From Reinekea thalattae (GTDB lineage Bacteria > Pseudomonadota > Gammaproteobacteria > Pseudomonadales > Natronospirillaceae), in the NCBI RefSeq assembly GCF_008041945.1, contig NZ_VKAD01000001.1:248001-312000 (forward strand): DNA of 64,000 nucleotides. Direction: 5' to 3'. Position numbers and translations under genes: made by a program. Position 1 is the stretch's first letter; the number at the start of each line of letters is the position of its first letter. Below are positions 11,774-35,047 of this stretch, piece by piece. A model generated the notes under the pieces. The model had not been told where the DNA came from, did not search any database, and saw only the letters and a program-made list of their open reading frames with translations.

Positions 11774-14700
11774 ATGAGTTTTAGCATTGGATTAAGCGGG
11801 GTTTCCGCGGCAAATACAGATTTAAGCGTAACAGGTAATAACATTGCTAACGCCAGTACGACCGGTTTTAAGTCGAGTCGTACCGAGTTTGGCGATGCCT
11901 ATACATCATCGCTCTTGGGTATGGGGCAAGATATTGTTGGCTCTGGTGTATCGGTGACCAATATTGGTCAAAAGTTTAACCAAGGCTCGATTACTCAAAC
12001 CGATTCGGCGTTAGACTTAGCTATCGATGGCGACGGCTTTTTTGTTACCGAATACGATAACGGTGAAATTACCTATACCCGCTCTGGTATTTTTGGCTTA
12101 GATGAAGATGGCTACGTAGTCTCTAATTCTGGCGCTACTCTGCAAGGCTATAGCGTTGCCAATGGTGAGATCGTCACTGGTGTATTAACTGATTTGCAGG
12201 TCGACAGTACACCTATCGCACCGCAACGTACGACCGATGTAGACATGGCGGTTGATATCCCATCGAATGCCGAAGTCTTAGTTTCTGAAGGCTCTATCAC
12301 AACAACCGATGGTCTTGCCGTTGGCGTTGTGCAAGCTGGTCCAGAAGAAGATACCGCAACGACGCTGAATTCGATCAGTTACCCAACAACAGCAGGAACG
12401 GCTTCTGAACTGGCGGGCGGTCCAATCACAGGCATTGTTTTTCCGTGGCAACCCACTACTGCTCAAGCCTCTATGACTCTCGATGTTAGTCTATATGGAG
12501 TCAATATTGACACTGATAGCTTTGCAGTAACGGCAAACATTCAGCCCTTCTCTGACGACACTGTTTACAATGACGTTAATGATATTGTTTCTGCGATCAA
12601 CTCAGCAATAGAGGGAAGTAGCGAGATTGCAGGGAAGATAGAAGCGTCAGTAAATGAGGTTGGTGGTATCAGCTTTCAAACCGTCGGAACTTATGCAACA
12701 GACGGCACTTCGATTGTGAGTGTGGACGATAATGTCGGTACACTTTCAAGTAGCAACTTTTTGAATTTTTCTGATTTTTCTTACACCTTGCAAGGCTCCA
12801 GTGAGACAGGTTTAGAAATTGTCAGCACGGCTACCTTTACAACGCTGACTAGTGGTCGGGAACTTTCAGGTGTTGATACTAGTTCTCCTTATTTAGACGC
12901 TTATATAGGTGAAACCATTGACTTTAATGTCAGTGTAGGTGGGACCATTGATAATATTAGTGTAACCATCCCACCAGGGGGGTTTACAGCGATAACTGAT
13001 TTAGTAACCGCATTAAACACTGAGTTTACAGCCGCTGGTGCCAACGTTACTGCTACTAACAGTGGTGATACCTTGGTCTTTACTTCTACTGTTGCAGGTG
13101 ACGTTGACCTCTACTTTTATACTGACACTTCATCAACAAGTGCCTTCGATGCTGAAGATTTAGGTTTTTTAACTTCTTCATCTTTTACGCCGACGACAGT
13201 GCAAGGTATTGATGTAAATGATACTTTGGTTCTTGATTATAACGGTACGACATCCGGCACAGATACATTCAATATTACTCCTGGCTCCTACGCAAATGCA
13301 GATGACTTGGTTACACATCTTAATTCTTTAGGCTCCACTGAGATTCAGTTCTATGCAATTGATGAAGTACTCTATGTCACTCGACTAGATACTGATACTA
13401 CCGCTTCTGTATCGGTAGATACGCTGCTCAGTACTAACCCAGGCTATTTTGGTTTAGATCCTGCTAGTGCTGAAGTTATTACGGCCCCAACGAGCGTAAC
13501 CCCTATTGCCGGTACAGACTTATTTGCTGACGATGGTTTTATAGATTTAAGTTCTTTCGATGGAGTAGCGACATCGATAGAAGGTAATACCACCGCTGGG
13601 ACGAGCTATAATAACTTTTCTGCTGGCACATATAGCGTCTATAGCGCAGCTAACCCTAATAGCTTAGGCGACATTGATACAATATTAGCTGGTGATGCCA
13701 GCCCTATTGAGTTCACTATTACTATTGGTTCTACAACTCACAGTATCAGCTATTCTCACTCAGGCGCAGGTACTTACGCCTCACAGGCGGCTTTTGCAGC
13801 GGATCTTGAAGCACAAATTGAAACGACTTTTGGTGCTGATTTAATAACGGTTGCGTTTGACGGAGATATTATTGAAATTACGTCTAATAATGTAGGTCCG
13901 GTTAATATAGAAATTTCTGATATCTCAGGCCACCTAACAAATATGGCGTTAACCGAAGATGCTAATCCTGATGCCTTTTTACAACCAGGCACTAATGATA
14001 TCGAAGCCAATAATGTATTAGAAATTACTATTGATGGTGGTAATGCAGAAAGTATTTCAATACCGGAAGATACCTATAGCATTGATGACCTTGTTGATGT
14101 AATTAACGAGCAGATTAACGCTAACGCTGTGCTCGCTAATGAGGTCGTGGTCACCGAAGAAAATGGTCGACTTGTATTCACCCGAACAGAGGTTGGTGAC
14201 TACCCGTTAGAACTTGAAATTACTGGTACCACCGAAGCGCTGGAAGCCTTTGGTTTGGATAGTCAAACAGAAACCGCTGGTGAAGACCCGATTGATCGTA
14301 GCCATAGCTTTACGATTAATTTAGATGTACCGGACCCTGATGAGGACGGCCGCTCTGGTTCGGTGACTATTTCGTTAGATGAAGTAATCTATTCGATTGA
14401 TCAGTTGGCGGCTTCGATCAACCGTGAGTTAGCCTCGGTGGAAGAGTCTGAATACATTGGTGTGCAAGCGGTTGTCGAAACTGATGAAGATGGTAATGAG
14501 TATTTAACTCTAGTGGCAACGGTCGAAGGTGAAGAGTCAACTATTTCCCTTACTAACATTACTGCAACGGGTGACGACTTAGATGTCAATGCGCTCTATG
14601 GCTTGTTGCAGGCTGATGAGTATGATTCAGACCTGTTAGAGATCGGTGAAGCCGCAACTGATAATGGCTACCCAGAACAGACTTTTGAGCTTTATAACGA

Positions 14701-16072
14701 AGCGGATGGCACCACTGAAACCATTGTGATTCCGGAAGCGTCGAGTGCCGCAGAAATTGCTGGTCAGCTGAGCGATTTAGCTGGAGTTACAGCGACAGCA
14801 GAAACCAATATGACCTTGGTTGCCAGCAGCTACATTAACAGCGGCGATATGGATCTTTATGTTAATGGCCAAGTGATTGAGTCCGATGATTTTGACGATA
14901 TCGTTGACGAAATTAACAGCTATAGCTTGACTACGCTGAATGGTATTACTGCCGCACTGGATGAAGAGACCGGCAATATTACCATCACATCGGCGACCGG
15001 TATCGACCTTAACGTCGGCATTGAATCGGATAACCCAACCGATTCTATTACTGTAGAAGGCACGGATGGCTATATCGATGTTACCTTGGGTGGTGATGAG
15101 AACGCTGAAACCTATGCCGTTGTTGGTGGCTCGGTGGAGATTATTCTCAACGAAGGCTTCAGTATGTCTGAGCCGGACCCACGTTTGACAGGTCTCTTTA
15201 ATGGCTTAACCGATGCTAGCTTTGAGCCTTACACCATTAATGAATTTGATCCGGATGATAGCGAAACCTACAACGAAACCTCGTCGATGACAGTGTACGA
15301 CTCTTTAGGTAACGACCATGAGATGCAGCTCTATTATGTGAAAAACGCAGCCGATGCTAGTGAGCTGAGTTCTTGGACAGTCTATGTTCGTATCGATGGC
15401 GAAGATGTCGGTGACCCTGATACATCGCTGGATTATCCAGAGAATTTAGAGCCGACCTATGCTTCGTTTGAGCTTTATTTCAATGCTGATGGTACCGTCA
15501 ACGAAGAAGATTCCGGTGAGTTTTTAATTACCAACTGGGATCCACTTGATCAGTATGGTGAGCCGACCGGTGCCTATACCTCGGTGAATATAGCCGAAGG
15601 TGCGTCAAGTATTATTGATAGAACTGATACAAACTCTAACTTCTCGATCTCATTCGGTGGTACCACCCAGTATGATCAAGACTTTTTCGCAGAAGTCGAA
15701 GGCCAAGACGGTTATGCGAGTGGTCAGCTTTCGGACCTTTACGTTGGTGAGGACGGTACTATTTACGCTACCTACACCAATGGCGAAACCGACCCAATTG
15801 GCCAGGTTGCCATTGCTAGCTTTACCAACAATGAAGGCCTAACACCTTCGGGCGATACTGAATGGGTTGAAAGTGTCGACTCCGGTGAACCGTCGATTGG
15901 CGTGCCTGGTACAGGAACATTAGGTACGCTTGTTTCGGCGGCATTGGAAGAATCGACCGTTGAGCTATCTGAAGAGCTGGTTAACCTGATTATTGCGCAA
16001 CGTAATTATCAAGCCAGTGCTAAGACGATTGAAACAGCTAACGAAGTAACGCAGACCATCATTAACCTCTAA
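11774..16072 (+). CDS. flgE: Giant flagellar hook protein FlgE (1432 aa)
   Basis: Hook subunit, usually about 400-450 aa. Both family ends are intact: N-terminal SFSIGLSGVSAANTDLSVTG and NNIANASTTGFKSSRTEFGD (1-50), and C-terminal VNLIIAQRNYQASAKTIETA. Between them lie about 950 extra residues. They form serial modules of about 80-130 residues starting near 381, 478, 645, 746, 844, 970 and 1025. The recurring pattern is F.I.idG...I.I..G.Y.s.ddL...IN......v.....L.f.s...G, similar to flagellin/hook IN-type modules. The protein is very acidic and no cysteine was seen. Residues about 970-1155 resemble FlgK 568-885. AGAGGAA lies just upstream of ATG. Two hairpins follow the stop. Confidence 0.93.
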   Translation: MSFSIGLSGVSAANTDLSVTGNNIANASTTGFKSSRTEFGDAYTSSLLGMGQDIVGSGVSVTNIGQKFNQGSITQTDSALDLAIDGDGFFVTEYDNGEITYTRSGIFGLDEDGYVVSNSGATLQGYSVANGEIVTGVLTDLQVDSTPIAPQRTTDVDMAVDIPSNAEVLVSEGSITTTDGLAVGVVQAGPEEDTATTLNSISYPTTAGTASELAGGPITGIVFPWQPTTAQASMTLDVSLYGVNIDTDSFAVTANIQPFSDDTVYNDVNDIVSAINSAIEGSSEIAGKIEASVNEVGGISFQTVGTYATDGTSIVSVDDNVGTLSSSNFLNFSDFSYTLQGSSETGLEIVSTATFTTLTSGRELSGVDTSSPYLDAYIGETIDFNVSVGGTIDNISVTIPPGGFTAITDLVTALNTEFTAAGANVTATNSGDTLVFTSTVAGDVDLYFYTDTSSTSAFDAEDLGFLTSSSFTPTTVQGIDVNDTLVLDYNGTTSGTDTFNITPGSYANADDLVTHLNSLGSTEIQFYAIDEVLYVTRLDTDTTASVSVDTLLSTNPGYFGLDPASAEVITAPTSVTPIAGTDLFADDGFIDLSSFDGVATSIEGNTTAGTSYNNFSAGTYSVYSAANPNSLGDIDTILAGDASPIEFTITIGSTTHSISYSHSGAGTYASQAAFAADLEAQIETTFGADLITVAFDGDIIEITSNNVGPVNIEISDISGHLTNMALTEDANPDAFLQPGTNDIEANNVLEITIDGGNAESISIPEDTYSIDDLVDVINEQINANAVLANEVVVTEENGRLVFTRTEVGDYPLELEITGTTEALEAFGLDSQTETAGEDPIDRSHSFTINLDVPDPDEDGRSGSVTISLDEVIYSIDQLAASINRELASVEESEYIGVQAVVETDEDGNEYLTLVATVEGEESTISLTNITATGDDLDVNALYGLLQADEYDSDLLEIGEAATDNGYPEQTFELYNEADGTTETIVIPEASSAAEIAGQLSDLAGVTATAETNMTLVASSYINSGDMDLYVNGQVIESDDFDDIVDEINSYSLTTLNGITAALDEETGNITITSATGIDLNVGIESDNPTDSITVEGTDGYIDVTLGGDENAETYAVVGGSVEIILNEGFSMSEPDPRLTGLFNGLTDASFEPYTINEFDPDDSETYNETSSMTVYDSLGNDHEMQLYYVKNAADASELSSWTVYVRIDGEDVGDPDTSLDYPENLEPTYASFELYFNADGTVNEEDSGEFLITNWDPLDQYGEPTGAYTSVNIAEGASSIIDRTDTNSNFSISFGGTTQYDQDFFAEVEGQDGYASGQLSDLYVGEDGTIYATYTNGETDPIGQVAIASFTNNEGLTPSGDTEWVESVDSGEPSIGVPGTGTLGTLVSAALEESTVELSEELVNLIIAQRNYQASAKTIETANEVTQTIINL

Positions 16073-16104
16073 CGGTTTATCGTAAGAGTTGATTGACTGA
16101 TCTA

Positions 16105-16139
16105 CAAAGCGAGTCGCTGCAGGCAGCGGATTCGCTTTG
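16105..16139 (+). terminator. Strong hairpin after flgE
   Basis: CAAAGCGA (16105-16112) pairs with TCGCTTTG (16132-16139), with an inner CGCTG/CAGCG stem, followed by a T-rich CTTTATTT. It lies 32 nt after the flgE stop and probably ends the flgBCDE transcript. Confidence 0.6.
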
Positions 16140-16242
16140 CTTTATTTAGTATCTTAGTTTGTTGTTAAGTGCTTCTATCAGGCTTATCGATTTAGGCAAA
16201 ATTAAAAGTGGTACATAATAAAAAGCGGCACGTAATTAAGAG

Positions 16243-16266
16243 CGGCAACCTCGTTGCCGTTTTTTT
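16243..16266 (+). terminator. Rho-independent terminator between flgE and flgF
   Basis: CGGCAAC-CTC-GTTGCCG followed by seven T. Classic intrinsic terminator upstream of the sigma-54 promoter of flgF. With the preceding hairpin it insulates flgBCDE from flgF-L. The rest of 16140-16400 shows no gene. Confidence 0.85.
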
Positions 16267-16408
16267 CATATGAATGGAAAGCGTTTGCCATCTTTCCTGA
16301 TCTGATGGTTGTTTGAGTGCTGTTTAGCTGTGACCTCCTGCTACAAAGATGCTCCTAGGCCTTTATCTATGTGCCCTCTGAATTAATTCCCTAGTAAATT
16401 TAAAAACT

Positions 16409-16422
16409 GGCACGTCTCTCGC
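16409..16422 (+). promoter_or_regulatory. Sigma-54 promoter of flgF operon
   Basis: CTGGCACGTCTCTCGCTT has GG at 16409-16410 and GC at 16421-16422 with ten bases between, and matches TGGCACG fully at -24. The predicted start is near 16433, which places the in-frame ATG at 16436 almost at the transcript end and supports 16472 as the flgF start. Confidence 0.85.
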
Positions 16423-16471
16423 TTAACTCTCTGTAATGACGAAAACCGTCAATCTAACTCAGGAGTTTGAA

Positions 16472-17215
16472 ATGGATCGTGCAGTCTATATCGCCATGAC
16501 CGGTGCCAAGAACAATATGTTTTCGCAGGCGTCTCATGCAAACAACCTTGCCAACTCAAGTACCTATGGTTTTAAGTCGGATTATGAGCAAGCCAGAGCG
16601 ATTCCGGTTTGGGGTGAACATCATCCATCGCGTGCTTTTGCAATGACCGAACGACCCGCTTCAGACTTTAACGACGGCGATCTAATACAAACCGATAACC
16701 CGCTCGATGTGGCGATTGCCGGTGATGGCTTCTTTGAAGTAATCGATGCTAATGGTCAGCCAGCTTATAACCGCCGTGGTGACTTTTCGGTAACGCCACT
16801 CGGTGAAGTCATTAACGGCTCCGGCCAATTAGTAATGGGCACGGGTGGCCCGATTACTTTGCCAGAATATGAGCGTCTAGAAATTGGTTACGATGGTGTT
16901 ATCAGTATTAAGCCCGCAGGTGCTGCTTCTGATCAGATGGTGATTGTTGATCAAATTAAAATGGTGAACCCAGATTTGCAAAATTTTGAAAAGGGCATCG
17001 ATGGTTTGTTTCGTCCAGTTGAAGGTGAACTGATTTTGGAGGCTGACGAAACACTGAGAGTCGTTTCAGGCTACATCGAAGGCTCTAATGTTAACCCTGT
17101 TGCTGAGCTTACCAATATGCTGGCGGTGAATCGCCAATACGAAACGCAAATTAAGATGATGAAGACCGCAGATGAAATGTCGGAATCATCGGCCAGTATT
17201 TTACCGATTAGTTAA
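16472..17215 (+). CDS. flgF: Flagellar proximal rod protein FlgF
   Basis: 247 aa, normal length. Seen: N-terminal MDRAVYIAMTGAKNNMFSQA, the rod signature HANNLANSSTYGFKSD, and C-terminal VNPVAELTNMLAVNRQYETQ. The start is ATG 16472, which has AGGAG seven bases upstream and gives the conserved MDRA start. The frame extends 12 codons further up, but that ATG lies at the predicted transcription start. It leads the flgFGHI unit. Confidence 0.95.
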   Translation: MDRAVYIAMTGAKNNMFSQASHANNLANSSTYGFKSDYEQARAIPVWGEHHPSRAFAMTERPASDFNDGDLIQTDNPLDVAIAGDGFFEVIDANGQPAYNRRGDFSVTPLGEVINGSGQLVMGTGGPITLPEYERLEIGYDGVISIKPAGAASDQMVIVDQIKMVNPDLQNFEKGIDGLFRPVEGELILEADETLRVVSGYIEGSNVNPVAELTNMLAVNRQYETQIKMMKTADEMSESSASILPIS

Positions 17216-17315
17216 TAGTTTGAGAGCTTTGTTTGCTAAAAATCTAGCGAATAAAGAATGAATTTAAATTGGCTGCAAGAGGCAGTCGGTTAAAAAAATA
17301 AAGAGGGCTTACGCC

Positions 17316-18101: not shown

Positions 18102-18127
18102 TAAAAATGAGTAAAGGGGAGCAGATA

Positions 18128-18817: not shown

Positions 18818-18862
18818 GCACGAATCAGCACTCAGACGCAGCGCTAAAATGAGATCATTATT

Positions 18863-19948: not shown

Positions 19949-19962
19949 AACCAACCATTACG

Positions 19963-21145: not shown

Positions 21146-24100
21146 ATGAGTCTGATAAATACTGCCATATCGGGCCTTAATGTCGCTCAAACTGCGCTAG
21201 AGGTAACCGGAAATAATATTTCTAATGCTGAGACAGAAGGCTACTCTAGGCAAGTGGTTGAGGTTTCATCATCCATTTCACTCTATACCGGCTCTGGTTA
21301 CATTGGTACTGGCGCAGACGTTGTTGATATTACTCGTATAACCGATGAATTTTTAACTGTTCAATTACGCTCGGATACTTCGGATTTTTTCGATCTTGAA
21401 ACCTACCGCGAATTAATTGAGCAAGTTGATACGCTAATTTCTACCGACTCTACTGGGTTACAATCCTCTATGGATCAGTTTTTTGCTGCCTTGCAAACGG
21501 CAGCAGAAAACCCTGCTTATATTCCATCAAGAGAAGTGCTAATCGGTGAGGCCGAAAGTTTGTCGGCTCAATTTAATATGGTTGCCGATTATCTCAACGA
21601 TATAGAAACGACTTTAGATAGCCAAATCGCCGCATCGGCAAAAGAAGTAAATTCTCTGGCAGAAACCATTGCGTTGTTGAACCAGCAAATTATGTCTTCA
21701 GCTGGTTCAGCAACAGGGTTAGATGCGAATGACCTACTCGATGCGCGTGACCAAGCGGTTTTAGAACTGAGCAGTTATATTGATGTCGATGTTGATGAAG
21801 TCGACGGCGGTTACAATATTTCTATTGGTAGTGGCCAGGCCTTAGTACTCGGTGTGACCTCCTATTCTATCGAGGCCACAGCCTCGGAGTCTGATCCAAC
21901 TCAGATGGGTATTACTTACGTTGGCGCGACCAGTCGAGTTGATATTACCGATGACATTAGTGGTGGCTCGATTGCCGGCATGATCGATTTTCGTGAGCAA
22001 TCTTTAGATAGCACCTACAACAGTATCGGTCAGCTAGCATTGACAATTTCTGAGGCGATTAACTCAACCCACACTTATGGTCTCGACTTGAATGGTGAAT
22101 GGGGTGGTGAATTCTTTAGTGAAATTAATAGCGATGATTTGGTTAGTAATCGAGTCACCAGCTTTTACACCAATACGTCGGCAAACGATAATTATTTTAG
22201 TGTCTATATTGAAGACACCAGTGCGCTGACTGGCAGCGATTACACGCTATCTGTTCCAGGACCTGGCACTACGCGTTACCAGATAACCGATGGCGATGGT
22301 AATGTTGTATTAGAAGGCGGTTTACAAAATGACTTCCCTCAAGAAATTGAATTTGATGGCTTGCGGCTAGTGATTGAAGATGGAAGTTTTGCTGAAGGCG
22401 ATGGCTTTACCATCAATCCTTACAGCGGCGCTGCAGAAAATATGACAACAGTGATCAGTGATCCTGAAGCAGTTGCGTTGGCTTATCCGATTCGTGCCAT
22501 TACAAACCTGAGTAATAACGGTTCTGGCGAAATAGACCAAGGTACTATGCTCAGTATCGATACTGAAACATTTTCAGTCGACGGTGAATTATCGCCACCG
22601 TTAGTGATCGTTTTTCATGATGAATACACCTACTCTGTATATGATAATACCGATGAAGGTAATCCGGTTTCACTTGAGCCGCCATTAGAATACTTAAGCT
22701 ATGTTCCCGGTACTACCAATACTATTTTTACCGATGATCCAGGTGAAACTCAGGTCAGCAGTTGGCGAGCTCGCTTGCCTTTTGATGCAACCACTGTCGA
22801 TCAGGGTGATACTGAAGATTTATATAACGGCATAAACCCGGAGCGTTTCGAGTTCTATTATACCGATAGCGAAACTGGTGAGGTCACCCTAATGGATGAT
22901 CTGTCGACTGAAAGCGGTGCCTCTGCGGCAGAAATAGCAAATGAGTTGAGTTTTATTGATGGTGTTGAGGCTCGCGCCTATACCGAAGTTCAGATGACCA
23001 ACTTCACCAATAATGGCACGACCTATGTACCAGACAATGAATTCGAGGTATGGATAAACGGCTTCAATATTACTAGCGAGGTGACTGCATCTTCGCAAAC
23101 AACCTATATGGATGGTTATCCAGAAGAAGTACCTGACGAAATGACGCCAGACTTTTTGGCCGATCGTATTAATAGCCATTATGAGCTTGTTGATTCGGGC
23201 ATTGTTGCTTATAGCGACGGTACTACGCTAACAATTGTCGATTCCAGCGGTGAAGATATTGTTATTGAGATGACCGGTGACAAGCCAGATGAAGTGCTTG
23301 TTGATGGTGTGCCGGACGTGATTGATCCAGGTGACTCTTTCCAACTTAGTACAGGGCAAACTTGGTCGATAGATCCTATTGTGGGCAATACCGATGGTTC
23401 GCTTAACAACAATACGGGCTATGATTTTACTGAGGAAGGCCCTTATGAATATGAGCTATATTTGCCGGATGGTCGCACGGGTTATATCACGCTAGATCAA
23501 AACTACTCTGATGCCGAAACGATGATTGCGGATATAGAGGATAAAATCACAGATTTACTGGATGATACATCCGTTGCTGAAGTTTCTATCGATGCCAGTG
23601 GCAATCTAAGCTATAAAACATTGATGACTATTTCTGGAACAGGTGATCCTACTCAGGTTGAAGCGGTCAGTATTGGTGGGCAAGTCGATATCACAATGGC
23701 TGATGGTATCTCGTTAGAAACTGACCCTGATATTGGTGGTATTTTCAATGGCATACCAGATGCGCAATCAACTTATTTTGGTTTCCAGTTTGAAATATCG
23801 GGTAATCCAGAAGCTGGAGATGAATTTAGTATTGAGTGGAATGAAGACGGTGTCTCAGATAACCGTAACGCGTTAGATTTAGTCAATCTAGAAACTGCAG
23901 AAATTGTTTATGGCACCACCACCATGGGTGAACTTTATAGCCTGACGGTTGAACGAGTCGGTGCGCAAACATCTTCGGTACAGGTATTGGCTAGTGCCTC
24001 TGAAGTGATTCTTGAAACAACGGCGGCTGAAGTACAGAGTATTCAAGGTGTTAACCTTGATGAAGAGGCCGCACTGTTGATTGAGTATCAAGCTTTATAC

Positions 24101-24166
24101 AGTGCAAATGCTAAAGTTATTTCGGTAGCGCAAGAACTGTTTGATACATTATTAGCAACATTTTAA
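21146..24166 (+). CDS. flgK: Enlarged hook-filament junction protein FlgK (1006 aa)
   Basis: HAP1, normally about 450-650 aa. Conserved ends: SLINTAISGLNVAQTALEVT and NNISNAETEGYSRQVVEVSS at the N terminus, LIEYQALYSANAKVISVAQE at the C terminus. The central region (roughly 300-900) is enlarged and rich in D, E, S, T and G. No cysteine was seen. Residues 568-885 contain a stretch like that of FlgE: FEFYY...GASAAEIANELSFIDGV, FEVWINGFNI, then GGIFNGIPDAQS at 864. GGAG lies seven bases upstream of ATG, 10 nt after flgJ. FlgN (5861-6346) should be its chaperone. Confidence 0.94.
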   Translation: MSLINTAISGLNVAQTALEVTGNNISNAETEGYSRQVVEVSSSISLYTGSGYIGTGADVVDITRITDEFLTVQLRSDTSDFFDLETYRELIEQVDTLISTDSTGLQSSMDQFFAALQTAAENPAYIPSREVLIGEAESLSAQFNMVADYLNDIETTLDSQIAASAKEVNSLAETIALLNQQIMSSAGSATGLDANDLLDARDQAVLELSSYIDVDVDEVDGGYNISIGSGQALVLGVTSYSIEATASESDPTQMGITYVGATSRVDITDDISGGSIAGMIDFREQSLDSTYNSIGQLALTISEAINSTHTYGLDLNGEWGGEFFSEINSDDLVSNRVTSFYTNTSANDNYFSVYIEDTSALTGSDYTLSVPGPGTTRYQITDGDGNVVLEGGLQNDFPQEIEFDGLRLVIEDGSFAEGDGFTINPYSGAAENMTTVISDPEAVALAYPIRAITNLSNNGSGEIDQGTMLSIDTETFSVDGELSPPLVIVFHDEYTYSVYDNTDEGNPVSLEPPLEYLSYVPGTTNTIFTDDPGETQVSSWRARLPFDATTVDQGDTEDLYNGINPERFEFYYTDSETGEVTLMDDLSTESGASAAEIANELSFIDGVEARAYTEVQMTNFTNNGTTYVPDNEFEVWINGFNITSEVTASSQTTYMDGYPEEVPDEMTPDFLADRINSHYELVDSGIVAYSDGTTLTIVDSSGEDIVIEMTGDKPDEVLVDGVPDVIDPGDSFQLSTGQTWSIDPIVGNTDGSLNNNTGYDFTEEGPYEYELYLPDGRTGYITLDQNYSDAETMIADIEDKITDLLDDTSVAEVSIDASGNLSYKTLMTISGTGDPTQVEAVSIGGQVDITMADGISLETDPDIGGIFNGIPDAQSTYFGFQFEISGNPEAGDEFSIEWNEDGVSDNRNALDLVNLETAEIVYGTTTMGELYSLTVERVGAQTSSVQVLASASEVILETTAAEVQSIQGVNLDEEAALLIEYQALYSANAKVISVAQELFDTLLATF

Positions 24167-24303: not shown

Positions 24304-25542
24304 ATGGCTGATCGTATTTCAACATCCTGGAGTTATAGCCAGCCGATTAGTGATATGTTGAGTTTGCAGGTACAGGTGAACGAAACTTACTCCAAAATTA
24401 GTTCTGGTAAAGAGGTTCAAACCGCCTCTGATGATCCTGTGGCTATGGCGCGTATCCTTCAGCTGGATCAAGACATTAACCAGATGGAACAATATCAAGA
24501 AAACATAGATATGTTGGAGGCTCGGCTAGAAATTGAAGACGCAGCCTTGTCTGGCGTTGCCGATGTGTTGCAAGGTATTCGTGAGTTGGTTGTGCAAGCA
24601 GGTAATGAAGGGGTTTACGAAGACACAGAGCTTCAGGCTATAGCCGATGAGATTCAGCAGTATCTATATTCGTTAGTCGACTTAGCTAACAGTAAGGATG
24701 GTGGTGGTGAGTATTTGTTTTCTGGTTTTCAGGGTGATGACATGGCGTTTGTCGAATCCCCAGGCGGTGGTTACAGTTATCAAGGAGATGATGGTGTCCG
24801 AGAAATTAAAATCAGTGACAGCGTAACGCTCGATGCTAGTGATGCTGGCTCGGAAGTTTTTTTGGATATCGATTCTGCCAGTACATCCTTTTATTCTTTT
24901 GCCAGCGATCAAAATACTGGCAGTGGAATTATCACGCAGGGTATTACTGTTGATCAAGAAGCGCTTGATGAGTTTTACCCGGATGATTTTTATATTGAAT
25001 TTAACAATGAATATGAATTGGATCCGCCTAATACCAACTATACCGTTTATCGCGTTTCTGACGGTCGAATAATGGAAGGTCTTGAGAACGTCGAATATTA
25101 TGAGGGCCAAGATATCGTGGTCGGTGGTATGAGTGTTGAGATTACAGGTGATCCTTACGCAGGCGATCAGTTTATTGTTGAATCATCACAGACTCAAAGT
25201 ATGTTCGTTTCGATCGAAAAAATAATTTACGCCATTGAAAATTATTCTGATAACACTGAGCTGTATGCAGCTGCCATTGCAGATGGCTTAGATAATATGG
25301 ACTATATTATTGATAACGTTTCAACGGTTAGAGCCAGTATTGGTTCACGCTTAAATACAGCAGACAATGTTGATAACCAGATGGCGGATAATATTTTAGC
25401 CTCACAAGAAATCCGTTCAGATCTTGAGGATTTAGATTACGCCGAGGCTGTGAGTAATTTGCAATATCAGGAATTTGTTTTGCAGGCAGTTCAACAAACC
25501 TATTCAACAATTTCTCAATTGAGCCTGTTTGATTACATCTAA
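24304..25542 (+). CDS. flgL: Hook-filament junction protein FlgL
   Basis: 412 aa, HAP3. N-terminal flagellin-like helix with SKISSGKEVQTASDDPVAMA, then VLQGIRELVVQAGNEGVYED and GGGEYLFSGFQGD. C-terminal LQYQEFVLQAVQQTYSTISQ. Length is near normal (300-420), unlike FlgE, FlgK, FliC and FliD. AAGGAG is upstream of ATG. The 137 nt before it hold loosely repeated TTCTTAATA-like units but no promoter that I can identify. Confidence 0.94.
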   Translation: MADRISTSWSYSQPISDMLSLQVQVNETYSKISSGKEVQTASDDPVAMARILQLDQDINQMEQYQENIDMLEARLEIEDAALSGVADVLQGIRELVVQAGNEGVYEDTELQAIADEIQQYLYSLVDLANSKDGGGEYLFSGFQGDDMAFVESPGGGYSYQGDDGVREIKISDSVTLDASDAGSEVFLDIDSASTSFYSFASDQNTGSGIITQGITVDQEALDEFYPDDFYIEFNNEYELDPPNTNYTVYRVSDGRIMEGLENVEYYEGQDIVVGGMSVEITGDPYAGDQFIVESSQTQSMFVSIEKIIYAIENYSDNTELYAAAIADGLDNMDYIIDNVSTVRASIGSRLNTADNVDNQMADNILASQEIRSDLEDLDYAEAVSNLQYQEFVLQAVQQTYSTISQLSLFDYI

Positions 25543-26187: not shown

Positions 26188-26664
26188 ATGAAGGGTGATC
26201 GCCAAGTATTGGTTGAATTAAATAAAATATTAAAGAATGAGCTGACGTCGATTAACCAGTTTTTTTTACACGCACGCATGTATAACAACTGGGGTTTTGA
26301 GGTTTTAAATGAAAAGGCTTATAAAAAATCGATTAAAGATATGAAACAGTCTGATGAAATCATTAATCGTATTTTGTTCTTAGAGGGTCTGCCAAATTTA
26401 CAAGACCTAGGTAAGTTGCACATTGGCGAGCATACCGAAGAGATGATCGAGTGTGATAGCCAAATACAGTTGGCGCAAATTGCTCAGTTAAAAGACTCCA
26501 TTAAAGTTTGTGAAGATTTAAAAGACTTTACCTCTCGTGAGCTGTTAAAAAGTATTTTAGCCTATGAGGAAGACTATCTCGATTGGTTGGAAACTCAACA
26601 ACATCTCATTGAAACGCTAAGCATTGAGAAATACTTACAGTCACAAATTCACGATGATGACTAA
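26188..26664 (+). CDS. bfr: Bacterioferritin subunit, haem-binding type with degenerate ferroxidase site
   Basis: 158 aa, iron-storage cage subunit. Aligned to E. coli Bfr without gaps through residue 130, it keeps E18, haem ligand M52 and E127. It has D51 for E51, Q54 for H54, Q94 for E94 and Y130 for H130. The di-iron centre is therefore likely non-functional while haem binding is kept. LFLEGLPNLQDLGKLHIGE confirms the family. It precedes a second subunit with the opposite pattern by 49 nt, so mixed 24-mers are expected. AAGGAG is upstream of ATG. Confidence 0.93.
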   Translation: MKGDRQVLVELNKILKNELTSINQFFLHARMYNNWGFEVLNEKAYKKSIKDMKQSDEIINRILFLEGLPNLQDLGKLHIGEHTEEMIECDSQIQLAQIAQLKDSIKVCEDLKDFTSRELLKSILAYEEDYLDWLETQQHLIETLSIEKYLQSQIHDDD

Positions 26665-26713
26665 TATTTCTAATATTACACATCGCTTTGTTAAAGAATC
26701 ATAGGAGCACAGT

Positions 26714-27181
26714 ATGAAGGGTAATCAAAAAATCATTGATGCATTAAATAGTTTGTTAGCACTAGAACTTACAGCGATGGATCAATACTTTATTCACAGT
26801 GAAATGTATGCCGATTGGGGTATCACAAAACTCTATGAACGCATTGCGCATGAATTTGACGATGAAAAAAGCCATGCTAAAGCGTTGATTGAACGGATGC
26901 TGTTTTTGGAAGGCGTACCAGATATGGCAGGGCGAGCGCCATTGCGTATTGGTAAGGATGTTCCAGCCATGCTCGATGCCGATTTGCAGGTAGAATATGA
27001 AGTACAAAAGGTGCTGGTAGAAACAATGGCGCTATGCGAACAAGAAAAAGACTTCCATACACGGCATATATTGCAAACCTTACTGGAAGATACCGAGGTT
27101 GATCACGCCTGGTGGCTGGAACAGCAACTTGGTTTAATCAAGCGTATTGGCTTAGAAAACTACATTCAGTCGCAGCTTTAA
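26714..27181 (+). CDS. bfr: Bacterioferritin subunit, ferroxidase type lacking the haem methionine
   Basis: 155 aa. Ferroxidase ligands are present: E18, E51, H54, E94 and an ExxH pair (E128/H131, shifted by a one-residue insertion). Position 52, the haem-ligating Met in classic Bfr, is Lys. It complements the preceding subunit, as in the two-subunit bacterioferritins known from Neisseria, Magnetospirillum and Pseudomonas. An intrinsic terminator follows 49 nt after the stop. AGGAG lies ahead of ATG. Confidence 0.93.
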   Translation: MKGNQKIIDALNSLLALELTAMDQYFIHSEMYADWGITKLYERIAHEFDDEKSHAKALIERMLFLEGVPDMAGRAPLRIGKDVPAMLDADLQVEYEVQKVLVETMALCEQEKDFHTRHILQTLLEDTEVDHAWWLEQQLGLIKRIGLENYIQSQL

Positions 27182-27694: not shown

Positions 27695-27760
27695 CATTAT
27701 AGTCGCCTAGCTTCACCAAAACTGTTTGTATCTATTTATAGTTAAGTCTTATTGTCTGCC

Positions 27761-27858: not shown

Positions 27859-27910
27859 CACCGCATGCTGTGAAGGTTATATATTTTTGGTTTTTTATTC
27901 CAAAAAACTA

Positions 27911-27938
27911 TAAAAGGTTTTTCAATATCGGCCGTTAT
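27911..27938 (+). promoter_or_regulatory. Sigma-28 promoter of fliC
   Basis: TAAAAGG (from 27911) and GCCGTTAT (27931-27938) resemble the FliA boxes, with spacing one base longer than the optimum. Predicted start is near 27945, giving a leader of about 68 nt. Confidence 0.65.
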
Positions 27939-28012
27939 AAATATTGTGAATCAATAACGTCGCTGGTTCGGGTCGCAATAGGGTGGCACTGTAAGGCGAA
28001 GGAGAAAAGAAT

Positions 28013-30250
28013 ATGGCTTTAGTTATTAATACCAATATGGCCTCGCTTAACGCTCAACGTAACTTGAGCTCTTCTCAAAGCGAGTACAATACATCTTTGC
28101 AACGTTTGTCTTCTGGTCTACGTATTAACAGTGCGAAAGACGATGCAGCAGGTCTTGCAATTTCTGCAAAATTTGAATCTCAAATTACCGGTCTTGATCA
28201 GGCGGTACGTAACGCAGGCGACGGTGTATCGCTAGCGCAAACAGCAGAAGGTGCCTTGGGTACCATGACCGATAACCTTCAGCGTATCCGTGAACTAGCG
28301 GTTCAGTCTTCTAACTCAACCAACTCAGAAGAAAACCGAGTGGCGTTGCAGGCAGAGGTTGAGCAGTTGATGTCGGAAATTACTCGTACAGCTGAAGAGA
28401 CTAACTTTAACGGTCAAAACCTACTAGACGGTAGCTTTAATGGTATTTTCCAGATAGGTGCTGATGCAGGCCAAACTGTAGAAATTAGCATTTCAGAATT
28501 GACGGCGAGCAAGTTAGGCGCCTCTAGTCAGGCTGGTGTTTCAGCGTTAGGTAATGAAAATGCATTATCTAATGGTGACCTTGTCATCAATGGTGAACAG
28601 ATTCGCTCGTCTACAGGTTCTGATGATAACTTGTCTTATGCCAATGCTGCTGCTAGTGGTATCGCTAAGGCTGCAGCTATCAATGAATATGCAGAAGAGA
28701 CCGGCGTAACAGCAACTGTTGATGAAAATGTCATGGTTGGTTCAGGAATGGCTGACCTAGCGACTGATGGTACGGCTGGAGCTGATGCTACTGCTGTTAT
28801 TGCCATTAATGGTGTGGATATCACCATTCAAGGTACGGATAACTCTGATGAAACGGACCGAGCGGCGACGCGTAGCTCTGTTGTTGCATCTATCAATGCC
28901 TTTGCTGAACAAACAGGTGTGACGGCATCAGACGGTGGCGATGAAGGTGGTATCGTGCTAACTGCAGCCGATGGTCGTAATATTGTACTGGAAGATGGTA
29001 CAGGTAACGCCGTAAATGATTTGACTGTGTATGGTCTTCAGGATGGAGATACAGCAGCTACTTCCGCAGGTGCTGATGCGGATGGTGACGGAGTAGATGA
29101 TAGTGGTGTTGCTTCCTATGCTGGTTACACGCTGACTGCTGAAAATGCTTCGACAGATATTGTAATCACCGGCGGTAATGGTACTGGCAGTGGTGATCTT
29201 TCTAACTCTGGCTTAACAGAAGGTACCTACACAGCTCAAAATGCTTATGTCACCTCGACATCTCAGGCTGTTGCTTTTGATACAGATATTGCTACTACTG
29301 AAGCGTTGGCAGCAGAGAAGGCGTTAGATGATGGTGATTTGGTCATTGAGGGTGTAACTATCAGGGCCTCTAGCGCAACTGATGATACCGCTTCCTATAC
29401 AGGTGCGGCTTCTTCAGATGCCTCAGCTTCAGGTATTGCTATCGCGGCAGCTATTAATGATGCTTCAGATGATACTGGTGTTACGGCAACGGTTAACGCA
29501 ACTGAGTTTACTGGTGCGTATGATGCGACTACTGCACTAGCTGGTACGGCAGGTGATACATCTGTGCTTACTCTTAATGGTATTGATATTACGTTAACCG
29601 ATTCAGGTGATTACGATACTAACTTGACCAATGTAGCTGATGCGATTAATCAATATGTTGGTCAAACAGGTGTCACAGCAACGAATAACGGTAAAACTAT
29701 TACGTTAACTGCAGAAGATGGGCGTAATATCTCTACCGAGCTGGTTGGTACGTCAACCGGAGTTCAGTTAGGCCTATCGGGTGTGTCTGAGGTAACTGGT
29801 GAAGCAAATACGACCTACTCTACGGTTACACTAAATGCTGCTTCTGCTATTGATATTGAGTATGGCTCTAACGGTATTGATGGTGTTACTGACTCTGGTT
29901 TTGCAGTGGGTAGTTTTGGTGGCGGTGAAGATGGTACCTTCCTAGAAGATATTGATATTTCTACCTTCGAGGGTGCTCAAGATGCGATTGTTGCCATCGA
30001 TAATGCATTAGAAACAGTAACATCGCAGCAGGCAGAACTTGGTGCAATTCAGAACCGTTTTGAATCAACAGTAACTAACCTTGAAGTAACGCAAGAGAAC
30101 TTGACGGCTGCGCAATCTGCAATTCAGGATGCTGACTTTGCAGAAGAAACAGCAGCGATGTCTCGTGCTTCGGTTCTGCAGCAAGCGGGTATTTCGGTAC
30201 TATCGCAAGCGAACTCAAGTGCCGAGCAAGTGTTGTCACTATTGGGTTAA
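28013..30250 (+). CDS. fliC: Large flagellin FliC (745 aa)
   Basis: Filament subunit. Typical D0/D1 ends: [40 protein letters not shown], and C-terminal [20 protein letters not shown] plus [19 protein letters not shown]. The surface region (about 170-640) is far larger than in a 280-500 aa flagellin. It holds an internal duplication: residues 184-330 and 437-580 share GDLVIxGxxIRxS, ASGIAxAAAIN, TGVTATV, LxxNGxDIT and LTAxDGRNI. The motif DADGDGVDD (355-363), like a calcium-binding acidic loop, lies between the copies. AAGGAG is eight bases upstream of ATG. No cysteine was seen. Confidence 0.96.
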
Positions 30251-30264
30251 TAGCAACTCTGTTA

Positions 30265-30326
30265 AAGCAGCTTGATGCCAACCTGTTTGGCTATCTAATA
30301 GCAGTAGTATGGGTATCAAGCGGCTT
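30265..30326 (+). other. Extended stem-loop between fliC and flaG
   Basis: AAGCAGCTTGATGCC (30265-30279) pairs with GGTATCAAGCGGCTT (30312-30326) at 13 of 15 positions, enclosing a smaller GCCAA/TTGGC hairpin. No T-run follows, so it is more likely an RNA stability or processing element than a full terminator. It could keep fliC mRNA more abundant than flaG. Confidence 0.5.
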
Positions 30327-30374
30327 GTTGTTAACGGAATTGATTGATAAGCCTAACAGTGAACGGAGGTGGAT

Positions 30375-30800
30375 ATGAATGAAATAAGTGTGCCGCAGCA
30401 AATAAAAAGCAGTACGCCGAAAGCATCCGCGCCGAACACGCAAGCTGATGGAGTGAGTAGTGGGGGTTCCACACCTCCAGCAGTAAGCAATGCGGATAAC
30501 CACGCAGTTGGAGTTGAAGACGGTTTAAGCTTAGCAGTAAACGAGCAAAACAAACCTGAGTCACAACAAAAGGAACAGGAGCAGCTAGCTGCTGCAGTTG
30601 CAAAGTTGAATGATTACGTGCAATCACATGAACGTAAGCTCGACTTTCAGATGGACCAAGATTCAGGTGAAACGGTAGTCACGGTATATGACGCAAACTC
30701 AGAAGAGGTTATTCGCCAAATACCAAACGAAGAGGCTTTGGAGTTAGCTCAGCGATTAAATCAGCAAGAGCCGATCACTCTATTTAGTGCTAATGTTTAA
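30375..30800 (+). CDS. flaG: FlaG family protein
   Basis: 141 aa. FlaG proteins affect filament length and usually sit between flagellin and fliD, as here. A disordered S/P/A-rich first half is followed by the FlaG domain (about 70-135): VAKLNDYVQSHERKLDFQMD and VTVYDANSEEVIRQIPNEEA. ATG 30375 has GGAGG five bases upstream; an in-frame GTG at 30369 overlaps the ribosome site and is rejected. Confidence 0.92.
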   Translation: MNEISVPQQIKSSTPKASAPNTQADGVSSGGSTPPAVSNADNHAVGVEDGLSLAVNEQNKPESQQKEQEQLAAAVAKLNDYVQSHERKLDFQMDQDSGETVVTVYDANSEEVIRQIPNEEALELAQRLNQQEPITLFSANV

Positions 30801-30825
30801 GCTTGCATTTAAAGCTTTTACTGTC

Positions 30826-30851
30826 AAAACCCAGCTTAGCTGGGTTTTTTT
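30826..30851 (+). terminator. Rho-independent terminator after flaG
   Basis: AAAACCCAGC-TTA-GCTGGGTTTT perfect stem followed by T. It is flanked by two copies of GCTTTTACTGTCAAAA (30814-30829 and 30884-30899). Confidence 0.93.
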
Positions 30852-30883
30852 ATGCCTGTAATTTTTACTATGTATGAACTAAG

Positions 30884-30899
30884 GCTTTTACTGTCAAAA
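30884..30899 (+). repeat. Second copy of a 16-bp direct repeat around the flaG terminator
   Basis: GCTTTTACTGTCAAAA occurs at 30814-30829 and again at 30884-30899, 70 bp apart, bracketing the terminator. This looks like a partial duplication of the terminator upstream arm. Confidence 0.8.
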
Positions 30900-30972
30900 G
30901 CGAAGCGTTTTAAAAATAAAGTGTATTTTTATTTTGGTAACAAGTCGTTACAAAGCTTCCATGAAATCTACT

Positions 30973-30999
30973 TAAAGTTTTTGACATATCGGCCGCTAT
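30973..30999 (+). promoter_or_regulatory. Sigma-28 promoter of fliD
   Basis: TAAAGTTT (30973-30980), 11 bases, GCCGCTAT (30992-30999). The -35 box is a perfect FliA match with exact spacing. It lies 127 bp before the fliD start, so fliD has its own late promoter separate from fliC-flaG. Confidence 0.85.
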
Positions 31000-31126
31000 A
31001 GAAACTAGCCGGTTTTGTATCTATTGGCTTAAGCTTTGCATTTGATTAGTGTTAGCAAGTAACTGTTTAATACAGACTATTGCAGTATTAAGTTTCTTTA
31101 ATTGATGAGTTGTTCAGGGTGAGCAT

Positions 31127-34100
31127 ATGGCTAGTGTATCGTCGCTTGGTATTGGTTCTGGGACCTTAACGTCCGATTTAGTGGAGAGCTTAGTTTCCGC
31201 TACTCGAGCGGACGCTGATCTCCGCTTAGCCTCCGATGAAGCGGAAAATGAGGCAGAAATTTCCGCTTGGTCTGAACTGCGAAACTACCTTGAAGACTTA
31301 CAGTCGGCCGCGTCTGCACTATCAAATTCTAATACGATTGATAGTACAACTGCCACGTCTTCGGATGAAGATGTCCTTACAGCAACAACAACGGCCGCAG
31401 CCGAAGCAGGAACCTATCGATTTGAAATAGATCAGGTTGCTACAGCTCATACCTTAGCTAGCCAAAGCTATGACAGTGTTGATGCAGTTGTTGGTACTGG
31501 TGTTTTAACTTTTAGCTTTGGTACGACAACCTTTGCAACAGATGATAGCTATCTTGCCTTCGAGCAGGATGCTGATACGGTTTCTACGCAAATTACAATT
31601 GACTCTAGTAACAACACGCTCGGAGATATTCGTGACGCCATAAACGATGCAGAATTCGGTGTAACGGCATCGATAGTTTATGACGGGAATGGTTATCGAC
31701 TTTTGATGACTAGTGATGAAACCGGCGAAGAGAGCTCAATGGAAATCACTGTTTCAGGTGATTCTGGATTACAAGCACTGGCTTACAACAGTGCCCAGAA
31801 TGATGAATCAGTCAATATGATGCAGACTCAGGCTGCGGAAGATGCATTACTTACTGTTAACGGGTTGTCTATTTCCAGTGCTAGTAATCAATTATCAGAA
31901 GTGATCACTGGCGTTACCATTGATCTAATTGATGCTAAAAGCAGTGCAGTAACATTGAAAATTTCGCAAGATACCGATGAGATTGCCGACAAAATTCAGA
32001 CATTCGTTGATGCTTATAATGAATACGCTGGTCTTTACGACATTCTAACCGAATATTCTGTTAGTGAGGATGACGAGACTATTTCTGAAAATGGTATTTT
32101 GATTGGTGATAACACCCTTCGTACTATTGATGATGCAGTACAAGATATTTTAAGTACTGTCTTAGATGGGCTAGAAAGTGCTACCTATACCTCTTTAGTA
32201 TCACTAGGCATAGAGACAGATCAAAATAATGACTTCATGTTAACTTTTGATAGCAGTACTTTTAATGAGGCTATGGAAGAAGCTTCAGATTCTGTTATTG
32301 GTCTTCTATCCAGTGCAGAAACAGCTACCAGCAGCCAGGTAAGTATATTGTTAACGGGTACTGATACACAGCCGGGAACATACAATGTCGATATCACTCA
32401 GCCTGCTACACAAGGCTATTACCAAGGATTGTCTACTGATGCGCTGGCTTTTGCATCGGATGTGGTAATTTCTGATATTAATGATCAATTTAGTATCACC
32501 TTAAACGGAGATACAGAAGTGATTAGTCTTGAGCAGGGGTCATACTCAAGTGGTGATGAGCTGGCTCAAATGATCCAGACATCTATTAACACTCAATATA
32601 CTAGTGATAGCGTTTCTGTTGAGTTTGATGAAGATAATCTTAGGTTCGCTATAACATCCACAAAATTTGGTAGTGAGTCGGAAGTCGTTATTAATAGTGT
32701 TGATACTATATTAGCAAGTACGCTTGGTATTGCATCGACAGGGTCTGGTGAATATCAAGGAGCTTATTTTGGTTCCTTGGGGGATACTTCCTTTTCTGCT
32801 ATCAGTGATGCCGCGGTCCTTACTGTAGATGAAGAAGATGGTATTGATTTTAATTTAAATCCGGTCAGCTTCGATATTGCATTGACTGGGACGACTGCAG
32901 ATGGCACATACACAATTAACCTAGATGAAGATTGGGCTGATGACATCGATTCAAATGGTGAAATAACTAACGATCGTGATCGTGACGATGTACTAACTTA
33001 TATACAAAGTGAATTAAATGATGCCGGTCTTGCAGGCATTGTGACCGCAGAGTTTAACGATAGTGATCGGTTGGTATTTTATACAGAGCCAGGTGCAGGA
33101 ACTCAGACACTAGATATTTCGAATATTTCGGTCACCGGTAGTGATTACTTAGGCTTGGTTGATAGTTCTAACACGAGCGGTTATACGGTTTCTGGTGCCA
33201 GTTTCGATCTTTCTTATTCTAACCGGGTGGGTGATGTTGACTCGGCTGCGAGTATTGTCGTTCCAGATGGAACTTACGAGACGGCAGAGGACCTAGCCCA
33301 AGCAATACAGGATGCAATTAACGCTGATGCAAATGTTTCTTCAAGTGCTTATGGAGCAACGACAGAGAGAGGCTCGCGTAGTCTTTATACTGCAGTGGAT
33401 TTTGCTTCCGATCCAGCCCAGTTTGTTATGGCAGTCAACGGTCAGGAAGTAACCGTCACAGTCGACACTAATGGTGCTGATAACATTAATAGTATTCAAG
33501 ATGCGATAGATGCTGCTCTAACGGCTGCAGGCATTTCAGAGACAGTTAGTGCAAGCTTAGACAGTAATGGTTTAGTGCTAACAACAGACTCTACTGGGTC
33601 GAGTGAAACACTGGAGATATTATCTGACGGTGCAGGTGCGACAACAAGTTCTGGATCAATTGACTTATCGTCATCTGTTATCGATTTTGCTACAAATCCT
33701 GCAGCGTTCTCTATAGAAGTCGGTGGTTATGATTTTGATATTGAAGTTGACTCAAATGGGCTGACTGGTGATACAGATGAAGAAACAAATCTTAATGCAA
33801 TACAGAATGCACTAAATTCTGCACTAGCTTCTGCTGGTGGTGGCGGAGTATTTAGTGCTGGTGATGTTGAGGCTAAGTTAGACGAAAACGGTTATCTTTA
33901 TTTTGAAACTATTTCTCAACAAGGCGAACAGACAGAATCAACCTTCGGTGCCGATGCCACAATTCAAATTACATCAGTTGATGCAACTAATAATTCACTA
34001 GGATTGACTGCCGAAGCTTCACCTAATATTAATGGTTATGACAGCTTTGGCTTGAGCTTGGGTTTATATTACGGATTCGATTCCGGTGCTACGGTAACTT

Positions 34101-35047
34101 ATAAACAGAATGATGAAGGAGAAGGTGGATTTTCAATCTCCTTTGATAATGATACGGATGTAACCCTCAGTAATATATCAACTGAGGCAACTGCATTATT
34201 GGGCTTTTCTACTACTAATTACAGTGGATCTGAAAATCAAATCGGTCAGGATGTTGCGGGTACTATTAATGGAGTGGAGGCTATCGGTAATGGTCAGTTT
34301 TTGACTGCAGCCGAAGGTAATGAGTCTGCAACAAATGGTTACTTATTAGGCTTTTCTGCAGCAGATTTTAGTGAAGCGGTTATTATTGATAGCTCTAATA
34401 ATAAATTTACCATTGAAGTTGATGGTGTAGAGTCTAATGAAATCGAAATAACGCCGGGTGCTTATGCTAGTGCTGATGATTTGATGGCAGAAATAGAGGA
34501 ACAAATTAATAGCGACTCGAACATTTACTTAGCAGACCTCGGTGTTGAACTTCAGTACGATGCTGATAATGCAATTTTTGGTATTTTTTCAGAATCTACG
34601 GGCTCTGAGTCTTCTATATCTATTACAGATATTAATAGCGGGCTAGTTGATATCTTAGGAATGGCTGAATCGACTCAGGGGGTTGATGGTTCTGAAGCCT
34701 CAGGAGAGGTTGATGACGCGGCAGGTCTAATGCTCAAAGTAACCGCTACTTCAGCTGGGTATTATGGTAGTGTCACTTATGTCGAAGGGATTTTTGCTAA
34801 TTTAGATGGCTATTTTGATGATATCTTAGGTTCTAATGGTCTAGTAACCTACAAGGAAACTGTGCTCGAAGAAGAAGCGACAGAGATTGATACGGAAATG
34901 AATGATCTAGATGATGAAATGGAAACTTATGCGGCAAGGTTATCTGATCAATTTATATACTACGATTCAGTTATTGCGGAGTTAAATAGCTGGGGCCAAT
35001 ACATTACCTCTCTATTTGCTGCTTTAACCAGTAACGATGACGAATAG
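31127..35047 (+). CDS. fliD: Giant filament cap protein FliD (1306 aa)
   Basis: HAP2 cap, usually 450-700 aa. The N-terminal domain (MASVSSLGIGSGTLTSDLVE to about residue 110, GTYRFEIDQVATAHTLASQS) and the C-terminal domain (LDGYFDDILGSNGLVTYKET, then a helix with QFIYYDSVIAELNSWGQYI) match FliD. The long middle has serial modules starting near 455, 582, 692, 763, 858 and 1092 with the pattern F.I..nG....v......G......i..AIn.al...g. An acidic loop DIDSNGEITND lies at 606-616, similar to calcium-binding loops. The protein is very acidic and no cysteine was seen. It follows its own sigma-28 promoter. Confidence 0.92.
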   Translation: MASVSSLGIGSGTLTSDLVESLVSATRADADLRLASDEAENEAEISAWSELRNYLEDLQSAASALSNSNTIDSTTATSSDEDVLTATTTAAAEAGTYRFEIDQVATAHTLASQSYDSVDAVVGTGVLTFSFGTTTFATDDSYLAFEQDADTVSTQITIDSSNNTLGDIRDAINDAEFGVTASIVYDGNGYRLLMTSDETGEESSMEITVSGDSGLQALAYNSAQNDESVNMMQTQAAEDALLTVNGLSISSASNQLSEVITGVTIDLIDAKSSAVTLKISQDTDEIADKIQTFVDAYNEYAGLYDILTEYSVSEDDETISENGILIGDNTLRTIDDAVQDILSTVLDGLESATYTSLVSLGIETDQNNDFMLTFDSSTFNEAMEEASDSVIGLLSSAETATSSQVSILLTGTDTQPGTYNVDITQPATQGYYQGLSTDALAFASDVVISDINDQFSITLNGDTEVISLEQGSYSSGDELAQMIQTSINTQYTSDSVSVEFDEDNLRFAITSTKFGSESEVVINSVDTILASTLGIASTGSGEYQGAYFGSLGDTSFSAISDAAVLTVDEEDGIDFNLNPVSFDIALTGTTADGTYTINLDEDWADDIDSNGEITNDRDRDDVLTYIQSELNDAGLAGIVTAEFNDSDRLVFYTEPGAGTQTLDISNISVTGSDYLGLVDSSNTSGYTVSGASFDLSYSNRVGDVDSAASIVVPDGTYETAEDLAQAIQDAINADANVSSSAYGATTERGSRSLYTAVDFASDPAQFVMAVNGQEVTVTVDTNGADNINSIQDAIDAALTAAGISETVSASLDSNGLVLTTDSTGSSETLEILSDGAGATTSSGSIDLSSSVIDFATNPAAFSIEVGGYDFDIEVDSNGLTGDTDEETNLNAIQNALNSALASAGGGGVFSAGDVEAKLDENGYLYFETISQQGEQTESTFGADATIQITSVDATNNSLGLTAEASPNINGYDSFGLSLGLYYGFDSGATVTYKQNDEGEGGFSISFDNDTDVTLSNISTEATALLGFSTTNYSGSENQIGQDVAGTINGVEAIGNGQFLTAAEGNESATNGYLLGFSAADFSEAVIIDSSNNKFTIEVDGVESNEIEITPGAYASADDLMAEIEEQINSDSNIYLADLGVELQYDADNAIFGIFSESTGSESSISITDINSGLVDILGMAESTQGVDGSEASGEVDDAAGLMLKVTATSAGYYGSVTYVEGIFANLDGYFDDILGSNGLVTYKETVLEEEATEIDTEMNDLDDEMETYAARLSDQFIYYDSVIAELNSWGQYITSLFAALTSNDDE

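What the first reader, a model, noticed from the sequence alone, without database searches (positions are those of the whole stretch)
11774..35047. Enlargement of hook, junction, flagellin and cap in one flagellum
FlgE (1432 aa), FlgK (1006), FliC (745) and FliD (1306) all keep the conserved ends of their families but have much larger central regions than usual. FlgB, FlgC, FlgF, FlgG and FlgL are of ordinary size. Large flagellins forming thick filaments are known in marine gammaproteobacteria such as Bermanella. Here the hook and cap are enlarged even more than the flagellin, which suggests that the whole exposed axis grew together, perhaps to keep surface packing compatible or to carry a common coat. 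The inserts are acidic, Thr/Ser/Gly-rich and seem cysteine-free.
Basis: partly seen in the sequence, partly recalled or inferred. Interest (0 to 1): 0.85.

Follow-up and report, generated by a model that had tools for sequence, protein, structure and literature searches.

The report
Flagellar hook and cap share modules
In a marine bacterium and its family, the flagellar hook, junction and cap proteins are about one and a half to three times their usual size because they carry repeated surface modules, one of them of the same kind as flagellin's own outer domain, so the outer layer of the flagellum seems to be built from interchangeable parts.

The parts
11774..16072 (+). flgE, hook protein, 1432 aa
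   Evidence: Pfam FlgE_D2, Flg_bbr_C, D1 and rod domains
12227..15235 (+). insert in FlgE, residues 152-1154
   Evidence: profile alignment with ordinary FlgE leaves this stretch unmatched
12437..14608 (+). six kind-A modules in FlgE (residues 222-325, 372-473, 474-570, 620-735, 738-838, 839-945)
   Evidence: profile repeats and cross-matches to FliD with reversed controls; predicted strand-strand-helix-strand-strand units at the same places
14636..15058 (+). kind-B module in FlgE, residues 955-1095, flagellin outer-domain type
21146..24166 (+). flgK, junction protein, 1006 aa
   Evidence: Pfam FlgK_D1 and ends
22634..23785 (+). insert in FlgK, about residues 497-880
   Evidence: low-confidence zone in alignment with ordinary FlgK
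22808..23293 (+). kind-B module in FlgK, residues 555-716
23408..23695 (+). kind-A module in FlgK, residues 755-850
   Evidence: matches FliD and FlgE modules; predicted strand-strand-helix-strand-strand
24304..25542 (+). flgL, second junction protein, 412 aa, not enlarged
28013..30250 (+). fliC, flagellin, 745 aa
   Evidence: Pfam Flagellin_N, Flagellin_C, Flagellin_IN
28550..29812 (+). tandem outer-domain repeats in FliC, residues 180-345 and 435-600 (kind B)
   Evidence: repeat E 1.6e-37, matches to FlgK and FlgE kind B
30369..30800 (+). flaG, 143 aa
   Evidence: Pfam FlaG
31127..35047 (+). fliD, filament cap, 1306 aa
   Evidence: Pfam FliD_N, split FliD_C
32318..34783 (+). insert in FliD, residues 398-1219, between ordinary residues 387 and 388
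32414..34696 (+). kind-A modules in FliD (residues 430-545, 560-685, 686-785, 756-845, 850-970, 1080-1190; third and fourth overlap)

Best explanation
A flagellum whose hook, junction and cap have gained an extra outer shell. The extra mass is a chain of small domains of two kinds that flagella already use elsewhere: kind A, related to the D2 domain of FliD, multiplied inside FlgE and FliD (one also in FlgK); and kind B, the flagellin-type outer domain, present in FlgK and FlgE together. Shown: sizes, insert positions, module kinship, conservation, joint length change of FlgE, FlgK and FliD, co-presence of kind B in hook and junction. Inferred: the modules face outwards, widen the structure, and add side contacts that stiffen hook and junction and give the cap a broader head. 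FlgE and FlgK are coupled because they touch at the hook-junction border. FlgL, not enlarged in this family, may be the adaptor that lets the filament follow only loosely. Inferred order: flagellin outer domain first, then FlgK, then FlgE, then A-arrays in FlgE and FliD.
For: Family-wide sizes; contrasts, and partial r 0.57 for FlgE-FlgK and 0.42 for FliD-FlgE; large FliD always with large FlgK, 28 of 28, and large FlgE with large FlgK, 29 of 30; insert identity within Reinekea like that of the ends for FliD (58 vs 58 and 38%) and FlgK (59 vs 51 and 64%); module kinship between genes with reversed and shuffled controls; kind B in both FlgE and FlgK in 27 of 92, neither in 62, FlgK only in 3, FlgE only in 0, reversed database 0 of 367; fold match to FliC D2/D3. 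Precedent: C. jejuni FlgE extra domains widen the hook when placed in Salmonella FlgE (PMC5069557, passages) and their loss makes most flagella break (PMC5097172, passages).
Against: The C. jejuni hook domains sit inside D2, here the insert lies at the D1/D2 border, and the Salmonella strain with the added domains swims less well, so the analogy is loose. Models are of low overall confidence (mean pLDDT 53.8 and 52.4, pTM 0.25 and 0.31), so how the modules pack is unknown; FliD was not modelled. Contrasts agree in sign in only 48 to 60 of 90 to 100 cases, so the correlations rest on the larger changes. FliD-FlgK has partial r 0.10. 23 of the 27 co-presence cases are one clade, and the genomes read in full were mostly picked for large proteins. 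Seven genomes enlarge FlgE without FliD. FlgE-FliC and FliD-FliC insert matches are weak (E 0.0025 and 0.008). FlgL is itself enlarged in other lines of the order (594-769 aa), which limits the adaptor idea.
Confidence: 0.55

Rival explanations
1. Whole-axis growth driven by the flagellin: the filament became thick and all parts followed to keep packing compatible.
For: Family means correlate for all pairs, Spearman 0.67-0.91; large FliC goes with large FlgK in 40 of 43; rank contrasts with FliC 0.31-0.35; kind B is a flagellin-type domain.
Against: Contrasts by amount with FliC 0.14-0.17 and partial r 0.03-0.08; within the family FliC varies 748-1248 at constant FliD and FlgK; a 1247-aa flagellin with ordinary partners.
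Confidence: 0.2
2. Adhesive or ligand-binding outer domains, with motility mechanics secondary.
For: The cryo-EM paper on the C. jejuni cap postulates that its extra FliD domain may be related to heparin binding (PMC7316729, passages); insert conservation.
Against: No adhesin or enzyme family among matches over the Pfam cut-off in the window proteins; fixed length and shared modules in hook, junction and cap point to structure; Foldseek matches to collagen-binding proteins were weak (E 0.004 and 0.13).
Confidence: 0.15
3. Near-neutral accumulation of duplicated surface domains tolerated because they face outwards.
For: FlgE insert varies in length and is less conserved than its ends (47 vs 71 and 68%).
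Against: FliD and FlgK inserts are about as conserved as the ends and the proteins nearly constant in size over 18 genomes, SD 11 and 8 aa.
Confidence: 0.1

Closest known systems
Giant flagellins with tandem DE regions in Oceanospirillales (Thomson 2018, PMC6248924; parts 1-3 of 4 read)
   Same: Marine gammaproteobacteria of a related group; FliC here has a tandem outer-domain repeat, and the long FliC relatives carry extra sequence between the repeats
   Different: That paper treats flagellin only and asks in its discussion whether other components are correspondingly large; here FliC is only 745 aa and hook, junction and cap carry most of the enlargement
Campylobacter jejuni FlgE with D3 and D4 (PMC5069557, PMC5097172; passages)
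   Same: Hook protein enlarged by inserted outer domains
Campylobacter jejuni FliD D4 (PMC7316729, PMC12221982; passages)
   Same: Cap protein with an extra domain inserted in the D1 helix bundle
   Different: One domain against an 822-aa chain; kinship of D4 and these modules not shown

Membership tests
Giant flagellins (Thomson) | flagellin longer than 1000 aa | tested here: not met
   745 aa; relatives up to 1248
Giant flagellins (Thomson) | two tandem DE regions | tested here: inconclusive
   tandem repeat 180-345 / 435-600, E 1.6e-37; the published DE model itself was not used
FlgE hook protein | rod, D1, D2 and C-terminal domains | tested here: met
FlgK junction protein | FlgK D1 and terminal domains | tested here: met
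FliD cap protein | FliD_N and FliD_C | tested here: met
   FliD_C split by the insert
C. jejuni-type enlarged hook | extra domains inserted inside D2 | tested here: not met
   insert between ordinary residues 151 and 171, ahead of the D2 match at 1152-1314
C. jejuni-type enlarged hook | wider hook | not testable with these tools
   needs electron microscopy

The most novel reading that the evidence does not exclude
Flagellin's outer domain was captured by the junction protein and then the hook protein, and FliD-type domains spread through hook and cap, so one outer shell made of interchangeable modules runs along the flagellum except at FlgL. Surface modules would then move between axial genes as a general way in which flagella evolve.
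Probability: 0.5. Interest if true: 0.75.

Novelty: new variant of a known kind. Interest (0 to 1): 0.6.

Why it matters
It bears directly on a question left open in print in 2018, whether the other parts of flagella with giant flagellins are enlarged too (PMC6248924). In this order hook and junction enlarge together, the cap with them in the largest group, and the filament only loosely. It points to named genera, Reinekea and Saccharospirillum, in which hook diameter, strength and cap size can be measured, and offers a test of whether outer domains move between the axial genes.

Full report
What is there. The window holds a flagellar cluster with flgB to flgL, then two ferritin-like genes, fliC, flaG and fliD. 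FlgE has 1432 aa, FlgK 1006, FliC 745 and FliD 1306; Pfam finds the family ends in each, and FliD_C is split by an insert. Profile alignment with two ordinary members of the order puts the extra stretches at FlgE 152-1154 (1003 aa) and FliD 398-1219 (822 aa, between ordinary residues 387 and 388), and in FlgK at about 497-880. Rod proteins and FlgL are ordinary. The genome belongs with Reinekea: four genomes that the tool places in the same genus have contigs of the same length as named Reinekea records.

It is a family trait. Lengths here are open frames, slightly longer than the proteins. In the 22 genomes of the family, FliD was found in 19 and is 1293-1340 in 18 of them (804 on a short contig), FlgK in 21 at 1005-1032, FlgE in 20 at 1222-1593 except one 855 on a short contig; FliC is 748-1248 in the 18 genomes tabulated. 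In a sample of 170 genomes across the phylum, 107 have FliD and only this genome exceeds 1000 aa; the next is 915. In the sample of the order a second family (f37, four genomes) and one further genome (f9) share the large set. FliD and FlgK inserts are about as conserved as the family ends: within Reinekea 58% against 58 and 38% in FliD, 59% against 51 and 64% in FlgK; the FlgE insert (47% against 71 and 68%) and FliC middle (53% against 78 and 73%) are looser.

Do the sizes move together? In 110 genomes of 33 families, family means correlate for every pair (Spearman 0.67-0.91); inside families FlgE-FlgK stands out (Pearson of log residuals 0.80; others -0.06 to 0.40). Independent contrasts on a tree of the first 400 or so residues of FlgK give FlgE-FlgK 0.69, FliD-FlgE 0.60, FliD-FlgK 0.48, and 0.14-0.17 for the pairs with FliC, not significant; without the three largest products the first three are 0.58, 0.38 and 0.33. 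Partial correlations are 0.57 for FlgE-FlgK, 0.42 for FliD-FlgE, 0.10 for FliD-FlgK and 0.03-0.08 with FliC. Against a clean split, rank correlations of contrasts are 0.30-0.39 for all six pairs, the FliC pairs included (0.31-0.35), and signs agree in only 48 to 60 of 90 to 100 contrasts, so the result rests on the larger changes. Large FliD never occurs without large FlgK (28 of 28) and large FlgE almost never (29 of 30), whereas large FlgK occurs without large FlgE in 19 and without large FliD in 20. Exceptions to a flagellin-led story are a 1247-aa flagellin with FlgE 476, FlgK 668, FliD 497, and FlgE 975 with FlgK 985 beside flagellins of at most 336 aa and FliD 480. Seven genomes have a large hook with an ordinary cap, some with FlgE_D2 itself split, so enlargement arose more than once and in different places. 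Limits: the tree is of one of the four genes, the thresholds (FlgE and FliD 800, FlgK 850, FliC 700) were chosen by me, and rows were left out as told under Tried and rejected.

What the inserts are made of. Profile-to-profile comparison finds repeats inside FlgE, FliD and FliC (E 1e-26, 3e-26, 5e-32; none in FlgK; self-reversed controls no lower than 0.0024) and kinship between genes: FlgE-FlgK E 4e-12, FlgE-FliD 3e-12, FlgK-FliC 9e-6, FlgK-FliD 2e-4, FlgE-FliC 0.0025, FliD-FliC 0.008; reversed and shuffled controls between genes never fell below 0.04. With 21 module profiles, 66 of 210 pairs beat the lowest of 210 reversed controls (one, D3-D4, overlaps by construction). Two kinds result. 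Kind A: six in FlgE, about six in FliD plus FliD's own D2, one in FlgK. Kind B: one in FlgE, one in FlgK, two in FliC. They are not sharply apart (one A-B pair at 4.9e-5). Flagellin_IN, a Pfam motif of flagellin and FliD, is found weakly in three of ten FlgE fragments and in five of nine FliDs, in the window's FliD within its native D2.

Hook and junction share the flagellin-type domain. Among 92 genomes or loci with both genes (30 genomes, mostly picked for large proteins, and 62 named loci), kind B is in both in 27, in neither in 62, in FlgK only in 3 (two of them weak; in the third, Pseudomaricurvus, FlgE reached E 0.036), in FlgE only in 0; the reversed database gives 0 of 367. The 27 come from seven families of the order, 23 from one clade. 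Flagellins of bacteria with ordinary hooks carry the domain (for example Psychromonas, E 4.7e-11), which with the FlgK-only cases suggests flagellin, then FlgK, then FlgE (inference). The FlgK copies form one group; the FlgE copies group with flagellin copies among them.

Mechanism, inferred. Extra domains on the surface should widen hook and junction and add side contacts. Placing the C. jejuni FlgE extra domains in Salmonella FlgE gives a bulkier working hook, though the strain swims less well (PMC5069557), and their removal in C. jejuni leaves more than 90% of cells with flagellar stubs (PMC5097172). The cap has been seen bound to the junction before filament growth (PMC12221982), but the partial correlations tie the cap to the hook more than to FlgK, which fits the shared kind-A modules. 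FlgL stays at 408-423 aa in 23 of the 24 large-hook genomes whose FlgL was read and may be the adaptor that frees the filament; elsewhere in the order FlgL is enlarged too (656 in G034; 594, 768 and 769 in genes beside flgK in G054, G041 and G038).

Against what is known. Giant flagellins and thick filaments are described (PMC6248924, parts 1-3 of 4 read), with FliD and FlgK not mentioned. In the rows listed by eight searches of the held library I saw no description of the enlarged hook, junction or cap in this group; most hits were not opened, and subscription papers are mostly not held.

Noticed in passing
26188-27181: Two adjacent ferritin-like (PF00210) genes lie between flgL and fliC.
   Followed up: no
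L002:1429-2274 (own genome C1:1694893): A 281-aa flagellin-like gene without outer domain, far from the cluster; similar short flagellin-like genes outside the cluster stand in many genomes of the family.
   Followed up: partly
own genome C1:468007-468354 (L343): fliS lies outside the window, about 185 kb from fliD.
   Followed up: no
10841-35047: Exposed axial proteins of this species are unusually acidic (FlgD, FlgE, FlgK, FlgL, FliD net negative 15-17 per 100 aa; family means 6-9 for the last four, FlgD not compared), rod proteins less so.
   Followed up: partly
L236 (G034), L062: Another lineage has FlgE 1162, FlgK 1151 and FlgL 656 aa with a 454-aa FliD, and the FlgE D2 domain itself split: a separate enlargement.
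   Followed up: partly
G054, G041, G038: FlgL genes of 594, 768 and 769 aa beside flgK: the second junction protein is enlarged in some other lines of the order.
   Followed up: no
G068: A 1247-aa flagellin beside ordinary hook, junction and cap.
   Followed up: no
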